From Desulfovibrio sp. (lineage in GTDB: Bacteria > Desulfobacterota > Desulfovibrionia > Desulfovibrionales > Desulfovibrionaceae): DNA of 34,893 nucleotides. How positions within the stretch are numbered: the stretch's first letter is position 1; each line of letters begins with the position of its first letter. Location: assembly GCF_014803725.1 (NCBI RefSeq), contig NZ_JAAVBE010000011.1, positions 58,437 to 93,329 on the forward strand, given 5' to 3'. The notes under the pieces are model-generated. The model made no database searches. It was given only the letters and a program-made list of their open reading frames with translations, and was not told where the DNA came from. Shown in pieces: positions 20,525 through 26,609 of this stretch. The position numbers and the translations under genes are program-made.

Positions 20525-20947
20525 CTAGATCATGTCGTCGTTGATGCGCTGGTCGCGCTCGCGGAAGCGCTGCTGGAGCATGAGGGGCAGGCTTTCCGGG
20601 TCGGCGGGGTCGTACTCGAACATCACGGCCGTGCCGTAGCAGGTGAAATACTTGCTGCCGTCGGGATGGAAGGCCACGTTCTCGTTATAGCCCACGATGG
20701 CCTGCGCGCCCTTGTTCATGGCGCGGGCGGCCATGCCGAAAAAGGCCTCTTCCGAGTCATAGCCGCGGCAGCACACGAGGCCGAGCACCTTGGCGATCTT
20801 GCGGCCTTCCACCTGATGGGTGGTCACGACCGGGAAACGCCCGGCCAGAAAGGCCTCGCGCACGCGCGAGTCGGCCGCGGGCGCGGTGTTCTGCTGCTTC
20901 TCGGCCTTGCGGGCCTTTTTGTCGTTACCGCCGAGCAAGAAAAACAT
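20525..20947 (-). CDS. YbjQ-like (UPF0145 / DUF74) domain protein
   Basis: A 140-residue cytoplasmic protein. Residues ~38-112 are a YbjQ-type domain: FPVVTTHQVEGRKIAKVLGLVCCRG, then GAQAIVGYNENVAF and TCYGTAVMFE; in YbjQ proteins this region contains the GxxIxxxxGxVxG and GANAIVG signatures. YbjQ proteins form stable pentamers of unknown role. This one has about 37 N-terminal residues, rich in Lys and Arg (NDKKARKAEKQQ), and a C-terminal helix beyond the domain. It starts after GGGAGG at 20947. Its promoter is a good sigma-54 site, so expression may be controlled by an enhancer-binding protein. Confidence 0.72.
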   Translation of the reverse strand: MFFLLGGNDKKARKAEKQQNTAPAADSRVREAFLAGRFPVVTTHQVEGRKIAKVLGLVCCRGYDSEEAFFGMAARAMNKGAQAIVGYNENVAFHPDGSKYFTCYGTAVMFEYDPADPESLPLMLQQRFRERDQRINDDMI

Positions 20948-21253: not shown

Positions 21254-22375
21254 TCAGCGCGTGCGCAGGCCGTTGGCCTCGCGCACAAAGGCATTATAGG
21301 CCGCGCGGCTGCGCAACGCCGCCACATTGAGCTCGCGCCGCTGCGGCGGGTAAAAGCCCTCGGCGAGCCCCCGCCCCAGCGCGTCGGCATAGGCCTGCGC
21401 CTCCTTGAGGAAGGCGCGGTACTGCCGCTCGAGCTGCGGGGCCGCGGCAAAGGGCGGCTTGCCCGCTTCGGCGATGCGGTTTGCAAGCTCCGTATGGATA
21501 TGCTCAAGCGAGGTGCGCGCCGCGGCTTCCAGGGTGGCTGCGGCCTCGCTTGCCTGCTTCTCCGCGGCTGCGCCCTTGGCCGCAACTTCGCCCGCGGCCG
21601 CGGCGTCTTCCGCGCCCAGAAGCTCCGCCGCCCGCCCGAAGCCGGCGAAGATGGCACCTGCGGCCTCGATCTGCCGTTGCAGCGGGTGCCCGCGCAGGAG
21701 CGCGGCCTCGGCCTCGGCGGCGCGGGCCTCAACGATTTCCAGCCAGGACTTGCGGGCGGCCATGAACTCGGCGTGGTCCGCGTCCAGCTTGGCCGCCAGC
21801 GCCTTGCCCTTGGCGCCGTCGTCACGGATGCGGCTGTCGGCCACATAGTCTTCCAGCGCCTTGTACTTGCCGAGCAGGCTGTCCAGCGCCTTGTCCATGC
21901 CGGCCAGCGCGGCGGTGAGCTTCGCCGCCTCCGCCTCGCTGAAGAGGCCGGCCTTGGGCTTGAGCCGCGCTTTCGCCGCCTCCCTACCGCCCACATTCCT
22001 GGGGCGCCCCGGCAACTGCCAGGTTTTGAGGTAGAAGCGCGCATTGGCGTAGAGCGCTTCAGGCAGCGCATAATAGCCGGTCTCCAGCGCGTTCATGGCC
22101 GTATTGTGGAAGTCGAGCGCGGCCTCGGCGCGGGCGCGTTCTTCGGCGGTCAGTTCCGGCCCGGGGGCGGGCACCGCTTCCGGCGCGGCCTTCGTGACGG
22201 CCGGGGGAGCGGGCGCCTTGCCTGCGGCGCTTTGCGCCGTCTTTTGGGCGCCCTTCTCCCCGCCCTTCTCCTCGTCCGCACCGCAGGCGCAGAGGGCCGC
22301 AGCCAGCAGCACACACAGCGCGAGCGCGAGGCCGCGGAGGCATCGCGGCTCAGACATGGTCTTCGATCCAGGCAT
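21254..22375 (-). CDS. DUF3829-like lipoprotein, unknown function
   Basis: A 373-residue exported protein with a lipobox-type signal (LALALCVLLAAALCAC; acylated Cys about 31). A Lys/Ala/Pro-rich linker of 35 residues is followed by a long helical domain (ELTAEERARAEAALDFHNTAMNALETGYYALPEALY..., ending RELNVAALRSRAAYNAFVREANG) that looks like DUF3829. The ATG at 22375 with GAGGGGG before it was chosen; an ATG at 22357 with a weaker site also gives a good signal. It overlaps the HAD gene and ends the minus-strand operon. A role in cell envelope maintenance is only inferred from the lipobox and neighbours. Confidence 0.7.
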   Translation of the reverse strand: MPGSKTMSEPRCLRGLALALCVLLAAALCACGADEEKGGEKGAQKTAQSAAGKAPAPPAVTKAAPEAVPAPGPELTAEERARAEAALDFHNTAMNALETGYYALPEALYANARFYLKTWQLPGRPRNVGGREAAKARLKPKAGLFSEAEAAKLTAALAGMDKALDSLLGKYKALEDYVADSRIRDDGAKGKALAAKLDADHAEFMAARKSWLEIVEARAAEAEAALLRGHPLQRQIEAAGAIFAGFGRAAELLGAEDAAAAGEVAAKGAAAEKQASEAAATLEAAARTSLEHIHTELANRIAEAGKPPFAAAPQLERQYRAFLKEAQAYADALGRGLAEGFYPPQRRELNVAALRSRAAYNAFVREANGLRTR

Positions 22376-22985
22376 TGAGCCCCCTCAGATCCGGCCCCCA
22401 GGGGAAGGGGCCGCCCTTGAGTTCCGGGCCCACGCCATAGAAGCGCGTGCCCACCTGTTCGGCGGCGTCGCGGTCGGTCACGGCGTCGCCCACCATGAGG
22501 GCCGCCTCGGGCGCGACGCCCGCGCCGTTCACGATGCGCGCCAGAAGCTCGGCCTTGGCCGGCGGCGAGCCGTGGATGCCGGTGAACATGTCGGCGAGGC
22601 CGCGCTCGGCGAGCACGGCGCGGACTTCCTCCTCCGGCGCGCCGGAACAGACATAGAGCGGCAGGCGGCCGCGCCACGTTTCCAGCACTTCGATGGCACC
22701 CGGGATGAGCGCGCAGCGGCGCACCTCATCCAGCGCGTAGTCCGCGAAGCGGCGCCCCCATTCTTCCGATTCTTCCGGCGTGATCTCCCGGCCAAGCACC
22801 TCCCGGAAAAACCAGGCGAACTTGCGATAGCGGCTCACGCCGCCATGCACCGTATGGTACATGACGAAGCGGTCGCGCGCCTCGGGCCCGAAGGGCTCGG
22901 CCAGGCGGGCGAAGGCCCGCGTCTTGACAGGCACGCTGTCGAGGATGACGCCGTCGCAGTCAAAAACCAGACATTCCAGCTTCAT
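22350..22985 (-). CDS. HAD-superfamily phosphatase (capped, phosphoglycolate-phosphatase-like)
   Basis: A 211-residue HAD hydrolase. Motif I is CLVFDCDGVILDS (DxD), motif II is in YVCSGAPEEEV (Ser/Thr), and motif IV is VGDAVTDRDAAEQVG with two acidic residues. The cap lies between motif I and II, so it is of the beta-phosphoglucomutase/Gph type and not the capless KdsC type. It should remove phosphate from a small metabolite, possibly a sugar acid phosphate made by the neighbouring genes. It follows the acyltransferase gene by nine bases and overlaps the lipoprotein gene. Confidence 0.82.
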   Translation of the reverse strand: MKLECLVFDCDGVILDSVPVKTRAFARLAEPFGPEARDRFVMYHTVHGGVSRYRKFAWFFREVLGREITPEESEEWGRRFADYALDEVRRCALIPGAIEVLETWRGRLPLYVCSGAPEEEVRAVLAERGLADMFTGIHGSPPAKAELLARIVNGAGVAPEAALMVGDAVTDRDAAEQVGTRFYGVGPELKGGPFPWGPDLRGLNAWIEDHV

Positions 22986-22994
22986 GTCCCTGCC

Positions 22995-23678
22995 TTATCC
23001 TTGTTCGTGCCCGCCGGCCGCGCTTCTCCCCGCTTTCCCCCGACTCCCGATGACGCGCGCCGGCACCCCGCCCACCACGCAGAAAGGCTCCACGTCGCGC
23101 GTGACCACCGCGCCCGCGCCCACCACGGCCCCGCGCCCGATGCGCACATCCGGGGTGATGACGCAGTTGGCGCCGATCCAGACATCGTCCTCAATGATGA
23201 CCGTGCCGGGCACATGGCCCTGCCGCATGATGGGCACGTCGCAGCGCTCAAAGCAGTGATTGGCCGCGCGCACCACCGTGCCCGGGCCGATGGCCGTGCA
23301 GCTGCCGATTTCGATGCGGCCATGGTCCGCGCCGAGATGCACCCCCGGCGAGAGCGCCGCGCCGTCCGCGAGCTCGAGTGCGCCGTCCTGCGCCGTGAGG
23401 ATGCAGTGACGCCCCACGCGCACGCCGCGGCCAAAGCGCATGTTGCGGCAGCCGGCCAGGCTCACGCCGGTGCCGAAGCGCACCAGAGTCCGCGAGGCGA
23501 AGAGCGGCAGCCAGCAGAGCGCCCTGAGGCCCATGCCCAAAGGCGTGGGAAGCCAGCCGAAGAGCGCCACCCACAGTTCTTCGAGCGCGGCGGCCAGCCG
23601 GGCCGCGGCCGTGGGGGCTTTCGGGGGGGTGGGGGCAGCGGGCGCGCCCTCCCCGCCTGCGGGCTCCGGGCTCTCCAT
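22995..23678 (-). CDS. Hexapeptide-repeat acyltransferase (LbH fold)
   Basis: A 227-residue protein. After a Pro/Ala-rich N-terminus, a hydrophobic segment ([20 protein letters not shown]) precedes a left-handed beta-helix (residues ~75-215) with [LIV]-G-x(4) hexapeptides: [90 protein letters not shown]. The likely catalytic His is in [13 protein letters not shown]. The end of the helix has the acetyltransferase VVGGVPAR signature of NodL/maltose O-acetyltransferase proteins. It starts one base after the cytidylyltransferase stop codon, so it is probably cotranscribed and may acetylate a surface sugar. Confidence 0.78.
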
Positions 23679-24458
23679 CTAGCGCGCCTTGTCGGCGTAG
23701 GCCGCCATGAGGTCGTCACCCTCCATGAGCCGCGCCACGCGGGCGAGGTCTTCGGGCGTGTCCACGCTCCAGGTGCGGGCCGCCGTGGGCACCATGCGCA
23801 CCTTTTCGCCATGCTCGAGGATGCGCAGCATGTCCACGGACTCGTAAATCTCGAGCGGGCTCTCCTCCATCTCGTTGAAGCGCAACAGATAGTCGCGCCG
23901 GAAGGGGATGATGCACACCTGCTTGCGCATGGGCACCTTGTCGCTCCCCTTCTTGCGCGAGGGGATGGGCTCACGCGAAAAATAGAGGGCGTCGTTCGCG
24001 CGGTCCACCACCACCTTGACCTCGTTGGGATCCTCGAATTCCGCCAGGGTCTCCATCTCGGCCATGAGGTTGGTCACGTTGACCGCGGGCTCGTCCAGCA
24101 GCGGCTGCACGGCCGCGTCAATCATCTCCGGCCGCACCATGGGCTCGTCGCCCTGCACCATGACCACGATATCCGCGCGCTTGCCGGTGAGCTCCTCGAT
24201 CTTGAGCAGGGCTTCGGCCGTGCGCGTGGAGCAGCGCACGTGGTGGTCGCCGGTCATGACGCAGTTGAGGCCCACGCGCTTGCAGTAGTCCTCGATGATG
24301 GGGTCGCAGGTGGCCACCCAGGTGGAGGAGAGGATGGGGCTCATGGCCGTACGGAAGGCCACGTGCCCCACCATGGGGACATGGTGGATGAGCGCCAGGG
24401 GCTTGCCGGGATAGCGGCTCGAGCCCATGCGCGCCGGAATGATGGCGATGATGTTCAC
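23679..24458 (-). CDS. KdsB-like cytidylyltransferase, divergent
   Basis: A 259-residue nucleotidyltransferase. The N-terminal IPARMGSSRYPGKPL (7-21) is the CTP-binding signature of KdsB-type enzymes, MVQGDEPMVRPEMID is the metal/nucleotide site, and DPNEVKVVVD...DALYFSREPIPS is typical of KdsB. However, the Kdo-contacting region, usually HxSGT[DE]RxAE, reads HHVRCSTRTAEAL, so the sugar substrate may differ from Kdo. The GTG at 24458 with AAGGAG seven bases before was used as start, giving VNIIAIIPARM. A product CMP-sugar acid is implied. The gene leads a unit with the acyltransferase, HAD and lipoprotein genes. Confidence 0.78.
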   Translation of the reverse strand: MNIIAIIPARMGSSRYPGKPLALIHHVPMVGHVAFRTAMSPILSSTWVATCDPIIEDYCKRVGLNCVMTGDHHVRCSTRTAEALLKIEELTGKRADIVVMVQGDEPMVRPEMIDAAVQPLLDEPAVNVTNLMAEMETLAEFEDPNEVKVVVDRANDALYFSREPIPSRKKGSDKVPMRKQVCIIPFRRDYLLRFNEMEESPLEIYESVDMLRILEHGEKVRMVPTAARTWSVDTPEDLARVARLMEGDDLMAAYADKAR

Positions 24459-24573
24459 TGGCGTACTCCTTGCGGGCTGTGTGAGGCTTTGCTTGTTCGG
24501 CTTGACTAAGCAGGACACGCGTTCCCTGCTTCTGCTGCTTCCTTAACGCCGAAATTATCCGTCAAAAACAGCC

Positions 24574-24670
24574 TTTTAGGTTCCGGCGGCGTCAGAAAAA
24601 AATTTCCTCGGTCGAGTACTTAAGTACACTCCCTTCGGAAATTATTTTTCTTCCTTGCCGGAACCTAAAA
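24574..24670. repeat. 97-base imperfect palindrome in the 24459-24792 gap
   Basis: TTTTAGGTTCCGGC (24574-24587) and GCCGGAACCTAAAA (24657-24670) are perfect 14-base arms. The interior continues to pair (GAAAAAAATTTCC at 24595-24607 against GGAAATTATTTTTC at 24637-24650) up to the 12-base palindrome GTACTTAAGTAC (24616-24627), almost exactly at the centre of symmetry. Composition is far less GC-rich than the flanks. It could act as a terminator, a cruciform, a MITE-like element or part of a structured RNA. Further out, AAGCAGG/CCTGCTT (24508-24531) and a minus-strand GATAAT (24559-24554) are also present. Confidence 0.6.
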
Positions 24671-24687
24671 ATCTTATTTTTTAGGAT

Positions 24688-24740
24688 TCTTCCGGCACCA
24701 GCACCCGTCTTCCGCTTCGCTCCAGACGGACGAAGGAAGA
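24688..24740. repeat. Second stem-loop in the 24459-24792 gap
   Basis: TCTTCC (24688-24693) pairs with GGAAGA (24735-24740), and inside it CCGTCT (24705-24710) with AGACGG (24724-24729). It follows the 97-base palindrome, 17 bases beyond its right arm, with an A/T-rich link. The rest of the gap up to 24792 shows nothing further. Confidence 0.45.
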
Positions 24741-24792
24741 TTTCATCGCATTACATACAAGCCATTGTGAAAATCCTTGTCATACATGGCCC

Positions 24793-25707
24793 TCAGTCGT
24801 CCGTGGGGACGAGGTAGCCGCCCTCGGCCTGCAAGTCCGGGTGCAGGGCGCGGTGCTCCTCCTCCATGACGCGGAGGATGCCCTGCCCGAGGTCCACGGT
24901 GAGCGGCGGCACGAGCTTGCGGCCCACCTTGGGCATGAAGGCATAGGGCGTTATCTGGTAATGGCCGCTGTTGGGGTCGTTCTGGTATTCGATGGTGAGC
25001 TCCTTGCCGAGCATTTCGCCGATCATCTTGAACAGGTCGCCCACGCGCATGGGCTGATTTCCCGAGATGATGATGTTCTGGTTGGTGAATTCCGGCGCGA
25101 GGATGGCAAGGGTGGCCGTGGCGGCGTCGTCCACGTGCACGTATTCGCGTAAGGCCGTGGGCGCGCCGTAATAGGTGATGACGCCCTTCGTCAGCGCCTC
25201 GTGCACGAAGCGCTCGATGGCGTTGCGGCGGTCGGCGCGCGGCCCGTAGAGCGAGCCGTAGCGCAGGATGGTGTACGGCAGCCCGTACATGGCCTGGTAG
25301 TTCTCGATATAGATCTCGCAGGACTGCTTGCTGCAGCGGTAAAAACCGCCGGACTTGCCGTAGACATAGAGCGAGGAGGCGAACACATAGCGCGAGACGC
25401 CCGCCTTGCGGCAGGCCTCCAGCGCCATGACATTGCCGACCACGTTGATGCGCGCCGTGTCCACCGGGCGGGAATTGGCCTCGCCGATGTCCGCGATGCC
25501 CGCGTAGTTGAACACCATGTCCGCGCCGTCCACGGCCTCGGCGACGATGCCCTCGTCAAGGATGGAGCCGACGAGCATGCGCTGGTCGGGCCTCAGCCAC
25601 GGCGAGGGGCGCACGTCCACGATGGTCACGGCGTGGCCGGCGTCCGAGAGCTTGTCGCAGATGTGCGAGCCGAGAAAGCCCGAGCCGCCGAAAACAGTCA
25701 TGCGCAC
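24793..25707 (-). CDS. NAD(P)-dependent epimerase/dehydratase, extended SDR family
   Basis: A 304-residue extended short-chain dehydrogenase/epimerase. The nucleotide-binding motif GGSGFLGSHI (GxxGxxG) is near residue 9, the SSLYVYG segment precedes a SxxxYxxxK-like site that here reads GGFYRCSKQSCE (the Tyr-X3-Lys is YRCSK), and LRYGSLYGPRADRRN is the substrate-loop signature. The usual order of UDP-glucose-4-epimerase type enzymes is kept. It would alter a sugar or sugar-nucleotide. GTG at 25707 with AGGGGG eight bases upstream was used; an ATG two codons later is possible. It lies 38 bases after the aldolase gene and is followed by the palindrome region. Confidence 0.82.
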   Translation of the reverse strand: MRMTVFGGSGFLGSHICDKLSDAGHAVTIVDVRPSPWLRPDQRMLVGSILDEGIVAEAVDGADMVFNYAGIADIGEANSRPVDTARINVVGNVMALEACRKAGVSRYVFASSLYVYGKSGGFYRCSKQSCEIYIENYQAMYGLPYTILRYGSLYGPRADRRNAIERFVHEALTKGVITYYGAPTALREYVHVDDAATATLAILAPEFTNQNIIISGNQPMRVGDLFKMIGEMLGKELTIEYQNDPNSGHYQITPYAFMPKVGRKLVPPLTVDLGQGILRVMEEEHRALHPDLQAEGGYLVPTDD

Positions 25708-25745
25708 GAGTGGTTCCCCCTGGGGCGGTCTTTTGCGTGATCCAT

Positions 25746-26531
25746 CTAGACGCGCGGCCGCTCCGCCCCGCGCCAGAGAAAGACCGTGTCGATGCCGTAG
25801 GCGATGAAGCGGCAGCCCGCCGCGATCTCCCGGGCCAGCGCGGCCGGGTCGGGCTGCACGATATGCAGGCCCATGCGGGCGTGGGTGCGGGCGCAGGCCG
25901 CCTTGATGCGCTCCATGGCGGCGATGAAGTCCGGGTGGTCGAAGCGGCCCGTGAGCCCCATGCTGCCCGAGAGGTCGTAAGGCCCCACCATGATGGCGTC
26001 GAGCCTGGGCTGCGCGAGGATGGCGTCGAGCTCGTCCACGGCGCGGATGTGCTCGATCTGGGCTACGAGAAAGATCTTCGGCGCGCGCTTCTCCCGGTAG
26101 GCGTCGAAGTCCTTGCCGAACACATTGGCCCGGCAATAGCCCACGCCCCGGTATTCCGGCGCCGTCTCGCCTGCCGGGCGCCACGAATCCTGCCCGGGAT
26201 AGGTGGCGAGGTCGATGGCCCGGTCGAGCTGGGCGCGGCTCTCGATCATGGGGAAGATGAGGCCCTGCGCCCCGGCCTCCAGCGCGGCCTTGATCCACGT
26301 CTTGGAGGCTTCGGGCAGCCGCGCGAAGGGCGCGGCCCCGCCGCATTCCACGGCGCGGAAGATGTTGGGGAGCACTTCGGGCCCGAAGGAGCCGTGCTCC
26401 ATGTCCGCCGCCACCCAGTCATAGCCCGCGCGGGCCATGAGCTCGGCCACGTCCGGCGAGGGGAGCTGGAGCCAGGTGCCCACCGTGGGCCTGTCCTGCG
26501 CGAGCAGGGCGCGGATGCCGTCAATGTCCAT
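25746..26531 (-). CDS. HpcH/HpaI-family (class II, pyruvate) aldolase
   Basis: A 261-residue metal-dependent aldolase. The family signatures are GTWLQLPSPDVAELMARAGYDWVAADMEHG (near residue 18-48; EHG includes the catalytic and metal residues), ARLPEASKTWIKAALEAGAQGLIFPMIES, and AQIEHIRAVDELDAI...DAIMVGPYDLSGSMG. The family splits or joins pyruvate with an aldehyde to give a 2-keto-3-deoxy-4-hydroxy acid. In this context with an SDR, a KdsB-like CTase and a HAD phosphatase, a biosynthetic role for a 3-deoxy-ulosonic acid is a sensible hypothesis, though a catabolic role (rhamnonate or glucarate type) is equally allowed by the family. The ATG at 26531 was chosen; AAGGCGGC precedes it. Confidence 0.82.
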   Translation of the reverse strand: MDIDGIRALLAQDRPTVGTWLQLPSPDVAELMARAGYDWVAADMEHGSFGPEVLPNIFRAVECGGAAPFARLPEASKTWIKAALEAGAQGLIFPMIESRAQLDRAIDLATYPGQDSWRPAGETAPEYRGVGYCRANVFGKDFDAYREKRAPKIFLVAQIEHIRAVDELDAILAQPRLDAIMVGPYDLSGSMGLTGRFDHPDFIAAMERIKAACARTHARMGLHIVQPDPAALAREIAAGCRFIAYGIDTVFLWRGAERPRV

Positions 26532-26580
26532 GTTCTGCCGCCTTTTCTTGCGCGGGCGGCTTGATGCCGCCGCGTCCATA

Positions 26581-26609
26581 ACCATAGCGCGGGGAGGGCT
26601 TGCGCGCAA
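26581..26609 (-). promoter_or_regulatory. Promoter candidate for the aldolase unit, with palindrome
   Basis: Minus strand: TTGCGC (26609-26604), 17-base spacer, TATGGT (26586-26581). The -35 overlaps the perfect palindrome TTGCGCGCAA (26600-26609). It lies just downstream of hypF and about 45 bases before the aldolase start. Confidence 0.5.

What the first reader, a model, noticed from the sequence alone, without database searches (positions are those of the whole stretch)
21254..26609. Possible pathway for a CMP-activated 2-keto-3-deoxy sugar acid that is not Kdo
Five minus-strand genes form a coherent chemistry: an HpcH/HpaI aldolase (joins pyruvate and an aldehyde), an extended SDR (modifies the sugar or aldehyde), a KdsB-like cytidylyltransferase, a capped HAD phosphatase and a hexapeptide acyltransferase, plus a lipoprotein. 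The cytidylyltransferase keeps the CTP site but its usual HxSGT[DE]R sugar site reads HHVRCSTRTAE. No kdsA, kdsC or neu gene is visible. Together they could make and decorate an acylated CMP-ulosonic acid for a surface glycan. The link is inferred from gene order and family chemistry; a catabolic aldolase that happens to be adjacent is the main alternative.
Basis: partly seen in the sequence, partly recalled or inferred. Interest (0 to 1): 0.72.

Follow-up and report, generated by a model that had tools for sequence, protein, structure and literature searches.

The report
Non-Kdo CMP-sugar pathway, LPS-less Desulfovibrio
Desulfovibrio bacteria, in whose 22 sampled genomes none of four marker genes for making lipopolysaccharide was found, keep a fixed row of genes that likely builds and activates an unusual acidic sugar, predicted to differ from the standard outer-membrane sugar Kdo, for a cell-surface glycan.

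Summary
The genes are real, on the minus strand: HpcH/HpaI aldolase, SDR, KdsB-like cytidylyltransferase (CTase), hexapeptide acyltransferase, HAD phosphatase, lipoprotein. The first five keep order and strand in 20 of 20 fetched relatives of the genus, named Desulfovibrio by matching records; the upstream neighbours HypF and MdtA are in 0 of 20, the downstream YbjQ-like gene in 10 of 20. In 22 genus genomes LpxC, LpxB, WaaA and LptD give 0 matches and KdsA 2, while 25-26 of 30 genera of the order have those four. So no Kdo-lipid A pathway is visible for this CTase. Elsewhere the module recurs in glycan clusters, usually with a 2-hydroxyacid dehydrogenase. A GT-B family, TIGR04326, over cut-off in 22 of 22 genus genomes and two relatives, is the best transferase candidate. 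Inferred product: a non-Kdo, aldolase-made CMP-ulosonic acid of unknown structure.

The parts
25746..26531 (-). HpcH/HpaI-type aldolase (261 aa); predicted to join pyruvate or hydroxypyruvate to an aldehyde
   Evidence: PF03328 101 bits; far below cut-offs of four named catabolic equivalogs; D43, H46, R71, Q158, E160, D186 invariant in 12 aligned homologs
24793..25701 (-). extended SDR (302 aa), NDP-sugar epimerase/dehydratase type; sugar-editing step inferred
   Evidence: PF01370 153 bits; 83-89% identical and adjacent in 20 of 20 genus loci
24548..24696 (.). 149-bp imperfect inverted repeat in the SDR-CTase gap; a dispersed element of this genome, not part of the pathway
   Evidence: 60-nt arms 70% complementary; 94% identical 115-bp copy on contig C24 (L063:59-173)
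23679..24458 (-). KdsB-like cytidylyltransferase of the R[AC] subfamily (259 aa, GTG start); predicted to make a CMP-ulosonic acid
22995..23678 (-). hexapeptide acyltransferase (227 aa); acylation inferred
   Evidence: PF00132 51 bits; adjacent in 20 of 20 genus loci
22350..22985 (-). HAD-superfamily phosphatase (211 aa); predicted to remove a phosphate from a sugar intermediate
   Evidence: PF00702 74 bits; FDCDG, CSG, K and GDAVTD motifs read by eye; 20 of 20 genus loci
21254..22375 (-). lipoprotein of no known family; found in 19 of 20 genus loci, 30-49% identical
   Evidence: no Pfam/NCBIfam match

Best explanation
The gene row is predicted to make a CMP-activated 2-keto sugar acid (ulosonic acid) that is likely not Kdo, probably for a surface glycan, in a genus in whose sampled genomes four lipopolysaccharide marker genes were not found. 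Proposed steps, all inferred from family chemistry: the aldolase joins pyruvate (or hydroxypyruvate) to an aldose or aldose phosphate; the HAD enzyme removes the phosphate; the SDR epimerises or oxidises the sugar; the CTase couples its C2 hydroxyl to CMP; the hexapeptide enzyme acylates it; a GT-B protein of family TIGR04326, encoded elsewhere in the genome, transfers it. Shown here: the conserved order, the missing LPS and (mostly) KdsA genes, the separate CTase branch with changed C-terminal-domain residues, and a predicted GT-B fold for the TIGR04326 protein.
For: Order: first five genes in order in 20 of 20 genus loci, all six in 19; HypF and MdtA in 0 of 20. LPS/Kdo genes in one set of 120 order genomes, genus g1: WaaA 0 of 22, LpxC 0 of 22, LptD 0 of 22, LpxB 0 of 22, KdsA 2 of 22, against CTase 21 of 22 and aldolase 21 of 22 (G071 lacks both). 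E. coli and Caulobacter rang as controls in all five. CTase: tree puts 27 R[AC] apart from 20 [ST]G sequences (support 91/91; one origin in 90% of bootstrap trees). Against 18 canonical rows (two intermediate rows left out): Q180 25/27 vs H 18/18, I184 25/27 vs Y 18/18, D209 27/27 vs E 18/18, M210 26/27 vs Q 18/18. Six genomes outside the genus hold both CTase types. Phylum, 395 genomes, at E 1e-60 (CTase) and 1e-50 (aldolase): of 12 genomes outside the order with an R[AC]-range match, 5 have the aldolase adjacent and 3 within 10 kb; of 78 with only canonical-range matches, 3 within 2 kb. Context in relatives: LIC12162-family and DegT-type aminotransferase genes by HMM; NeuB-like and flippase genes by eye. 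TIGR04326 is over cut-off in 24 of 120: 22 of 22 genus genomes plus G083 and G091, where it lies 3-6 kb from the CTase.
Against: No substrate or product is known. NF009905, a subfamily named for Kdo cytidylyltransferase, is met. Kdo could in principle be made by an aldolase. G071 has TIGR04326 but no cluster; G076, G090, G107 and G117 have CTase and aldolase but no TIGR04326, so the transferase link is loose. Three canonical-range CTases of family f59 also sit near an aldolase. The downstream YbjQ-like gene also recurs in 10 of 20 genus loci, so some neighbour conservation may be plain synteny. A paper reports Kdo and a glucosamine lipid A in LPS of an intestinal strain named D. desulfuricans (PMC3354558, abstract and passages), at odds with the gene absence unless that strain lies outside this set. 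The dehydrogenase of the module elsewhere is not in the Desulfovibrio rows.
Confidence: 0.62

Rival explanations
1. Kdo made by another road: the aldolase builds Kdo itself from pyruvate and D-arabinose, and this CTase is the KdsB of Desulfovibrio, for a capsule or glycan other than lipid A.
Against: Four C-terminal-domain residues fixed in canonical relatives are changed in 25-27 of 27 members. An SDR and, elsewhere, a dehydrogenase would not be needed for pyruvate + arabinose (inference).
Confidence: 0.17
2. The target is a protein (flagellin, pilin or the clustered lipoprotein) rather than a glycolipid or polysaccharide: CMP-sugar for protein glycosylation.
For: A lipoprotein of unknown family ends the row in 19 of 20 genus loci; no polymerase or flippase was recognised beside the row in the window (the flanks of the other genus loci were not annotated).
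Against: In relatives the module often sits with surface-polysaccharide genes; the lipoprotein gave no hit at E 1e-6 in L116-L143.
Confidence: 0.13
3. The aldolase is a catabolic enzyme that happens to be adjacent; CTase and the rest do something unrelated.
For: HpcH/HpaI enzymes are often catabolic (recalled).
Against: Next in the row in 20 of 20 genus loci, and near the SDR in 65 of 66 named loci with both; adjacent to the CTase in 5 of 12 genomes outside the order; scores far under four catabolic equivalog cut-offs.
Confidence: 0.05

Closest known systems
KdsA-KdsC-KdsB-WaaA (Kdo) pathway of LPS
   Same: KdsB-fold CTase with CTP and metal residues kept; a keto acid as predicted substrate; a phosphatase
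   Different: no KdsA found in 20 of 22 and no WaaA, LpxC, LpxB or LptD in 22 of 22 genus genomes; an aldolase instead of a PEP synthase; H, Y, E, Q of canonical relatives replaced
NeuB/NeuA-type nonulosonic acid pathways (sialic, legionaminic, pseudaminic acid)
   Same: keto acid and CMP activation (predicted here), SDR and hexapeptide helpers, surface-glycan context in relatives
   Different: no NeuB or aminotransferase in the row; CTase is KdsB- not NeuA-like, though PseF/NeuA-like CTases take its place in several related modules
HpcH/HpaI aldolases (HpaI, GarL, RhmA)
   Same: PF03328; conserved residues
   Different: below all four equivalog cut-offs; fixed neighbour of SDR and CTase
TIGR04326 (O_ant_LIC13510) surface carbohydrate family and HP-motif GT-B enzymes
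   Same: predicted GT-B region; invariant KPHP lysine, histidine and proline; WaaA 2xci and a polysialyltransferase (5wcn) among many structural matches
   Different: no tested activity; encoded away from the row in Desulfovibrio; many other GT-B families match as well

Membership tests
KdsB (CMP-Kdo synthetase) | score over TIGR00466 equivalog cut-off | tested here: not met
   133.8 bits, cut-off 155.2
KdsB (CMP-Kdo synthetase) | score over NF009905 subfamily cut-off | tested here: met
   328.4 bits, cut-off 255
KdsB (CMP-Kdo synthetase) | CTP and Mg residues (R10, R15, K19 and two Asp in PMC3149649) | tested here: met
   R10, R15, K19, D104, D233 invariant in 13 members; the two Asp matched by the QGDEP and VDTP motifs, by eye
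KdsB (CMP-Kdo synthetase) | C-terminal-domain H, Y, E and Q shared by 18 canonical relatives and by the five solved KdsB chains printed | tested here: not met
   Q180, I184, D209, M210; that these four touch Kdo is recalled, no call shows it
KdsB (CMP-Kdo synthetase) | activity on Kdo | not testable with these tools
   needs an enzyme assay
Kdo-lipid A pathway | KdsA, WaaA, LpxC, LpxB, LptD in the genome | tested here: not met
   no match in G000, 99.93% complete
HpcH/HpaI aldolase superfamily | PF03328 match with conserved residues | tested here: met
   which residues are catalytic is recalled
named catabolic HpaI/GarL/RhmA equivalogs | score over NCBIfam cut-off | tested here: not met
   135.3 < 368.8, 109.3 < 393, 106.7 < 406.75, 95.4 < 441 bits
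NeuB-type nonulosonic pathway | NeuB synthase in the genome | not tested
   no NeuB search was run on the genome; none is in the row
TIGR04326 | score over cut-off in the window's genome | tested here: met
   675.8 bits, cut-off 250, one match, G000:C34:11791-13740

The most novel reading that the evidence does not exclude
Desulfovibrio has given up lipopolysaccharide and Kdo and instead builds its outer surface around a glycan whose key acidic sugar is a new CMP-ulosonic acid made by an aldolase rather than by a PEP-dependent synthase.
Probability: 0.22. Interest if true: 0.88.

Novelty: new variant of a known kind. Interest (0 to 1): 0.68.

Why it matters
The CMP-activated ulosonic acids known to me are made by PEP-dependent synthases (KdsA, NeuB family; recalled). 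An aldolase-first route would be a new way in and probably a new sugar. It is conserved through a genus of gut sulfate reducers in whose sampled genomes the usual LPS genes were not found, although at least one paper treats D. desulfuricans endotoxin as a pathogenicity factor (PMC3354558, abstract). What replaces LPS there would bear on how such bacteria meet the immune system, and the module recurs in other glycan clusters of the phylum.

Full report
What is there. On the minus strand between 21254 and 26531 lie an HpcH/HpaI aldolase, an extended SDR, a KdsB-like cytidylyltransferase (CTase), a hexapeptide acyltransferase, a HAD phosphatase and a lipoprotein. CTase, hexapeptide, HAD and lipoprotein genes touch or nearly touch; the 334-base gap before the CTase holds a 149-base imperfect palindrome with a 94% identical 115-base copy elsewhere in the genome. 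The window lies on contig 11 of a 2.63-Mb genome, 99.93% complete.

Is the row a unit? I fetched 20 neighbourhoods of the genus; with the window's own these are all 21 of the 22 genus genomes that have the CTase. The first five genes keep order and strand in 20 of 20 and all six in 19. The window's upstream neighbours HypF and MdtA appear in none; the downstream YbjQ-like gene appears in 10 of 20. Among 80 named loci, many cut by contig ends, all six are in order in 42 and the first five in 55; where both genes lie on the CTase strand, aldolase-SDR are within 1.2 kb in 65 of 66 and SDR-CTase in 74 of 76.

Is it Kdo? One set of 120 genomes of the order was searched for markers. The 22 genomes of the window's genus do not occur in the match tables for WaaA (85 of 120 genomes match), LpxC (78), LptD (85) or LpxB (86), and 2 of 22 match KdsA (91 of 120 match). 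Part of the unmatched genomes are given by these calls only as a number; I read absence from the match tables. E. coli and Caulobacter rang as controls each time. The CTase is in 21 of 22 and the aldolase in 21 of 22, the one miss (G071) being the same. The two genus genomes with KdsA (G062, G092) carry it next to a canonical-type CTase, in addition to this cluster. Ten genomes of three other genera of the family (g3, g6, g12) also lack all four LPS markers and have no match for this aldolase or for the R[AC] CTase.

Wider module. In 20 loci outside the close set and 15 from the phylum, aldolase, SDR, HAD and a CTase recur, often with a D-2-hydroxyacid dehydrogenase (PF00389/PF02826). At 60 bits or more the dehydrogenase is in 16 of 28 named loci L116-L143, 7 of 8 loci of L053-L061 and 12 of 15 loci L163-L177 (a few of these loci are the same place fetched twice). 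It is not part of the Desulfovibrio rows. In several modules a PseF/NeuA-like CTase stands in (L060, L061, L175-L177), and in L061, L172, L175 and L176 a cyclase-family protein joins (PF04199 shown for L172 and L176). The dehydrogenase suggests that the aldolase donor could be hydroxypyruvate made from a glycerate; this is speculation. The SDR subfamily is large (7,311 proteins at E 1e-40 among 8,000 scored).

Linkage at phylum scale. Of 395 genomes, 12 outside the order have an R[AC]-range CTase match (E 1.8e-147 to 7.1e-78; motif read in 11, G406 through its twin record L129; G392 not fetched). Five have the aldolase within 130 bases, three within 10 kb, two on other contigs, two none at E 1e-50. 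Of 78 genomes with only canonical-range matches down to E 1e-60, three (all family f59) have an aldolase within 2 kb.

Against. A 2012 paper reports Kdo (thiobarbiturate and GC/MS), glucosamine and 3-hydroxytetradecanoic acid in LPS of an intestinal strain called D. desulfuricans, and cites an earlier suggestion that Kdo is absent (PMC3354558; abstract and passages). A 3-deoxy-ulosonic acid from the present pathway might be thiobarbiturate-positive (inference), but would not explain the lipid A data. That strain has no genome in my calls.

Verdict. A conserved, aldolase-centred set for a CMP-ulosonic acid that is probably not Kdo, in a genus in whose sampled genomes the usual LPS genes were not found. 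Shown: gene order, absences, CTase branch, predicted folds. Inferred: every reaction, the sugar, the acceptor, the transferase.

Noticed in passing
genus g1 and genera g3, g6, g12 of the family (handles): LpxC, LpxB, WaaA and LptD give no match in 22 of 22 g1 genomes and in 10 genomes of three other genera, so loss of LPS genes seems recurrent in this family; this conflicts with published D. desulfuricans LPS chemistry.
   Followed up: partly
window 24548-24696; L063:59-173: A 149-bp imperfect palindrome between SDR and CTase with a 94% identical 115-bp copy near the start of contig C24: a dispersed repeat.
   Followed up: partly
G036, G049, G068, G093, G062, G092: kdsA next to a canonical-type kdsB in genomes without a WaaA or LpxC match: Kdo seems kept for something other than lipid A, perhaps a capsule.
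   Followed up: no
L170, L171 (family f59): A different cluster: an HMGL-like protein (by eye), an HpcH aldolase and a KdsB-like CTase intermediate between the two types; possibly another aldolase-made CMP-sugar.
   Followed up: no
L144:7655-10764 and six other genus loci: TIGR04326 follows an IF-2B-family gene in 7 of the 9 genus TIGR04326 loci that were gene-called; unexplained.
   Followed up: no
L172, L175, L176, L061: A 'putative cyclase' (PF04199) protein joins the module in some loci; its step in a sugar pathway is unknown.
   Followed up: no
L125:5775-6530: A second, apparently broken CTase copy of the same subfamily upstream of an intact cluster.
   Followed up: no
window 20525-20947: A YbjQ-like gene (PF01906) follows the lipoprotein and is also found in 10 of 20 genus loci, mostly downstream of the row; whether it belongs to the unit is open.
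   Followed up: partly
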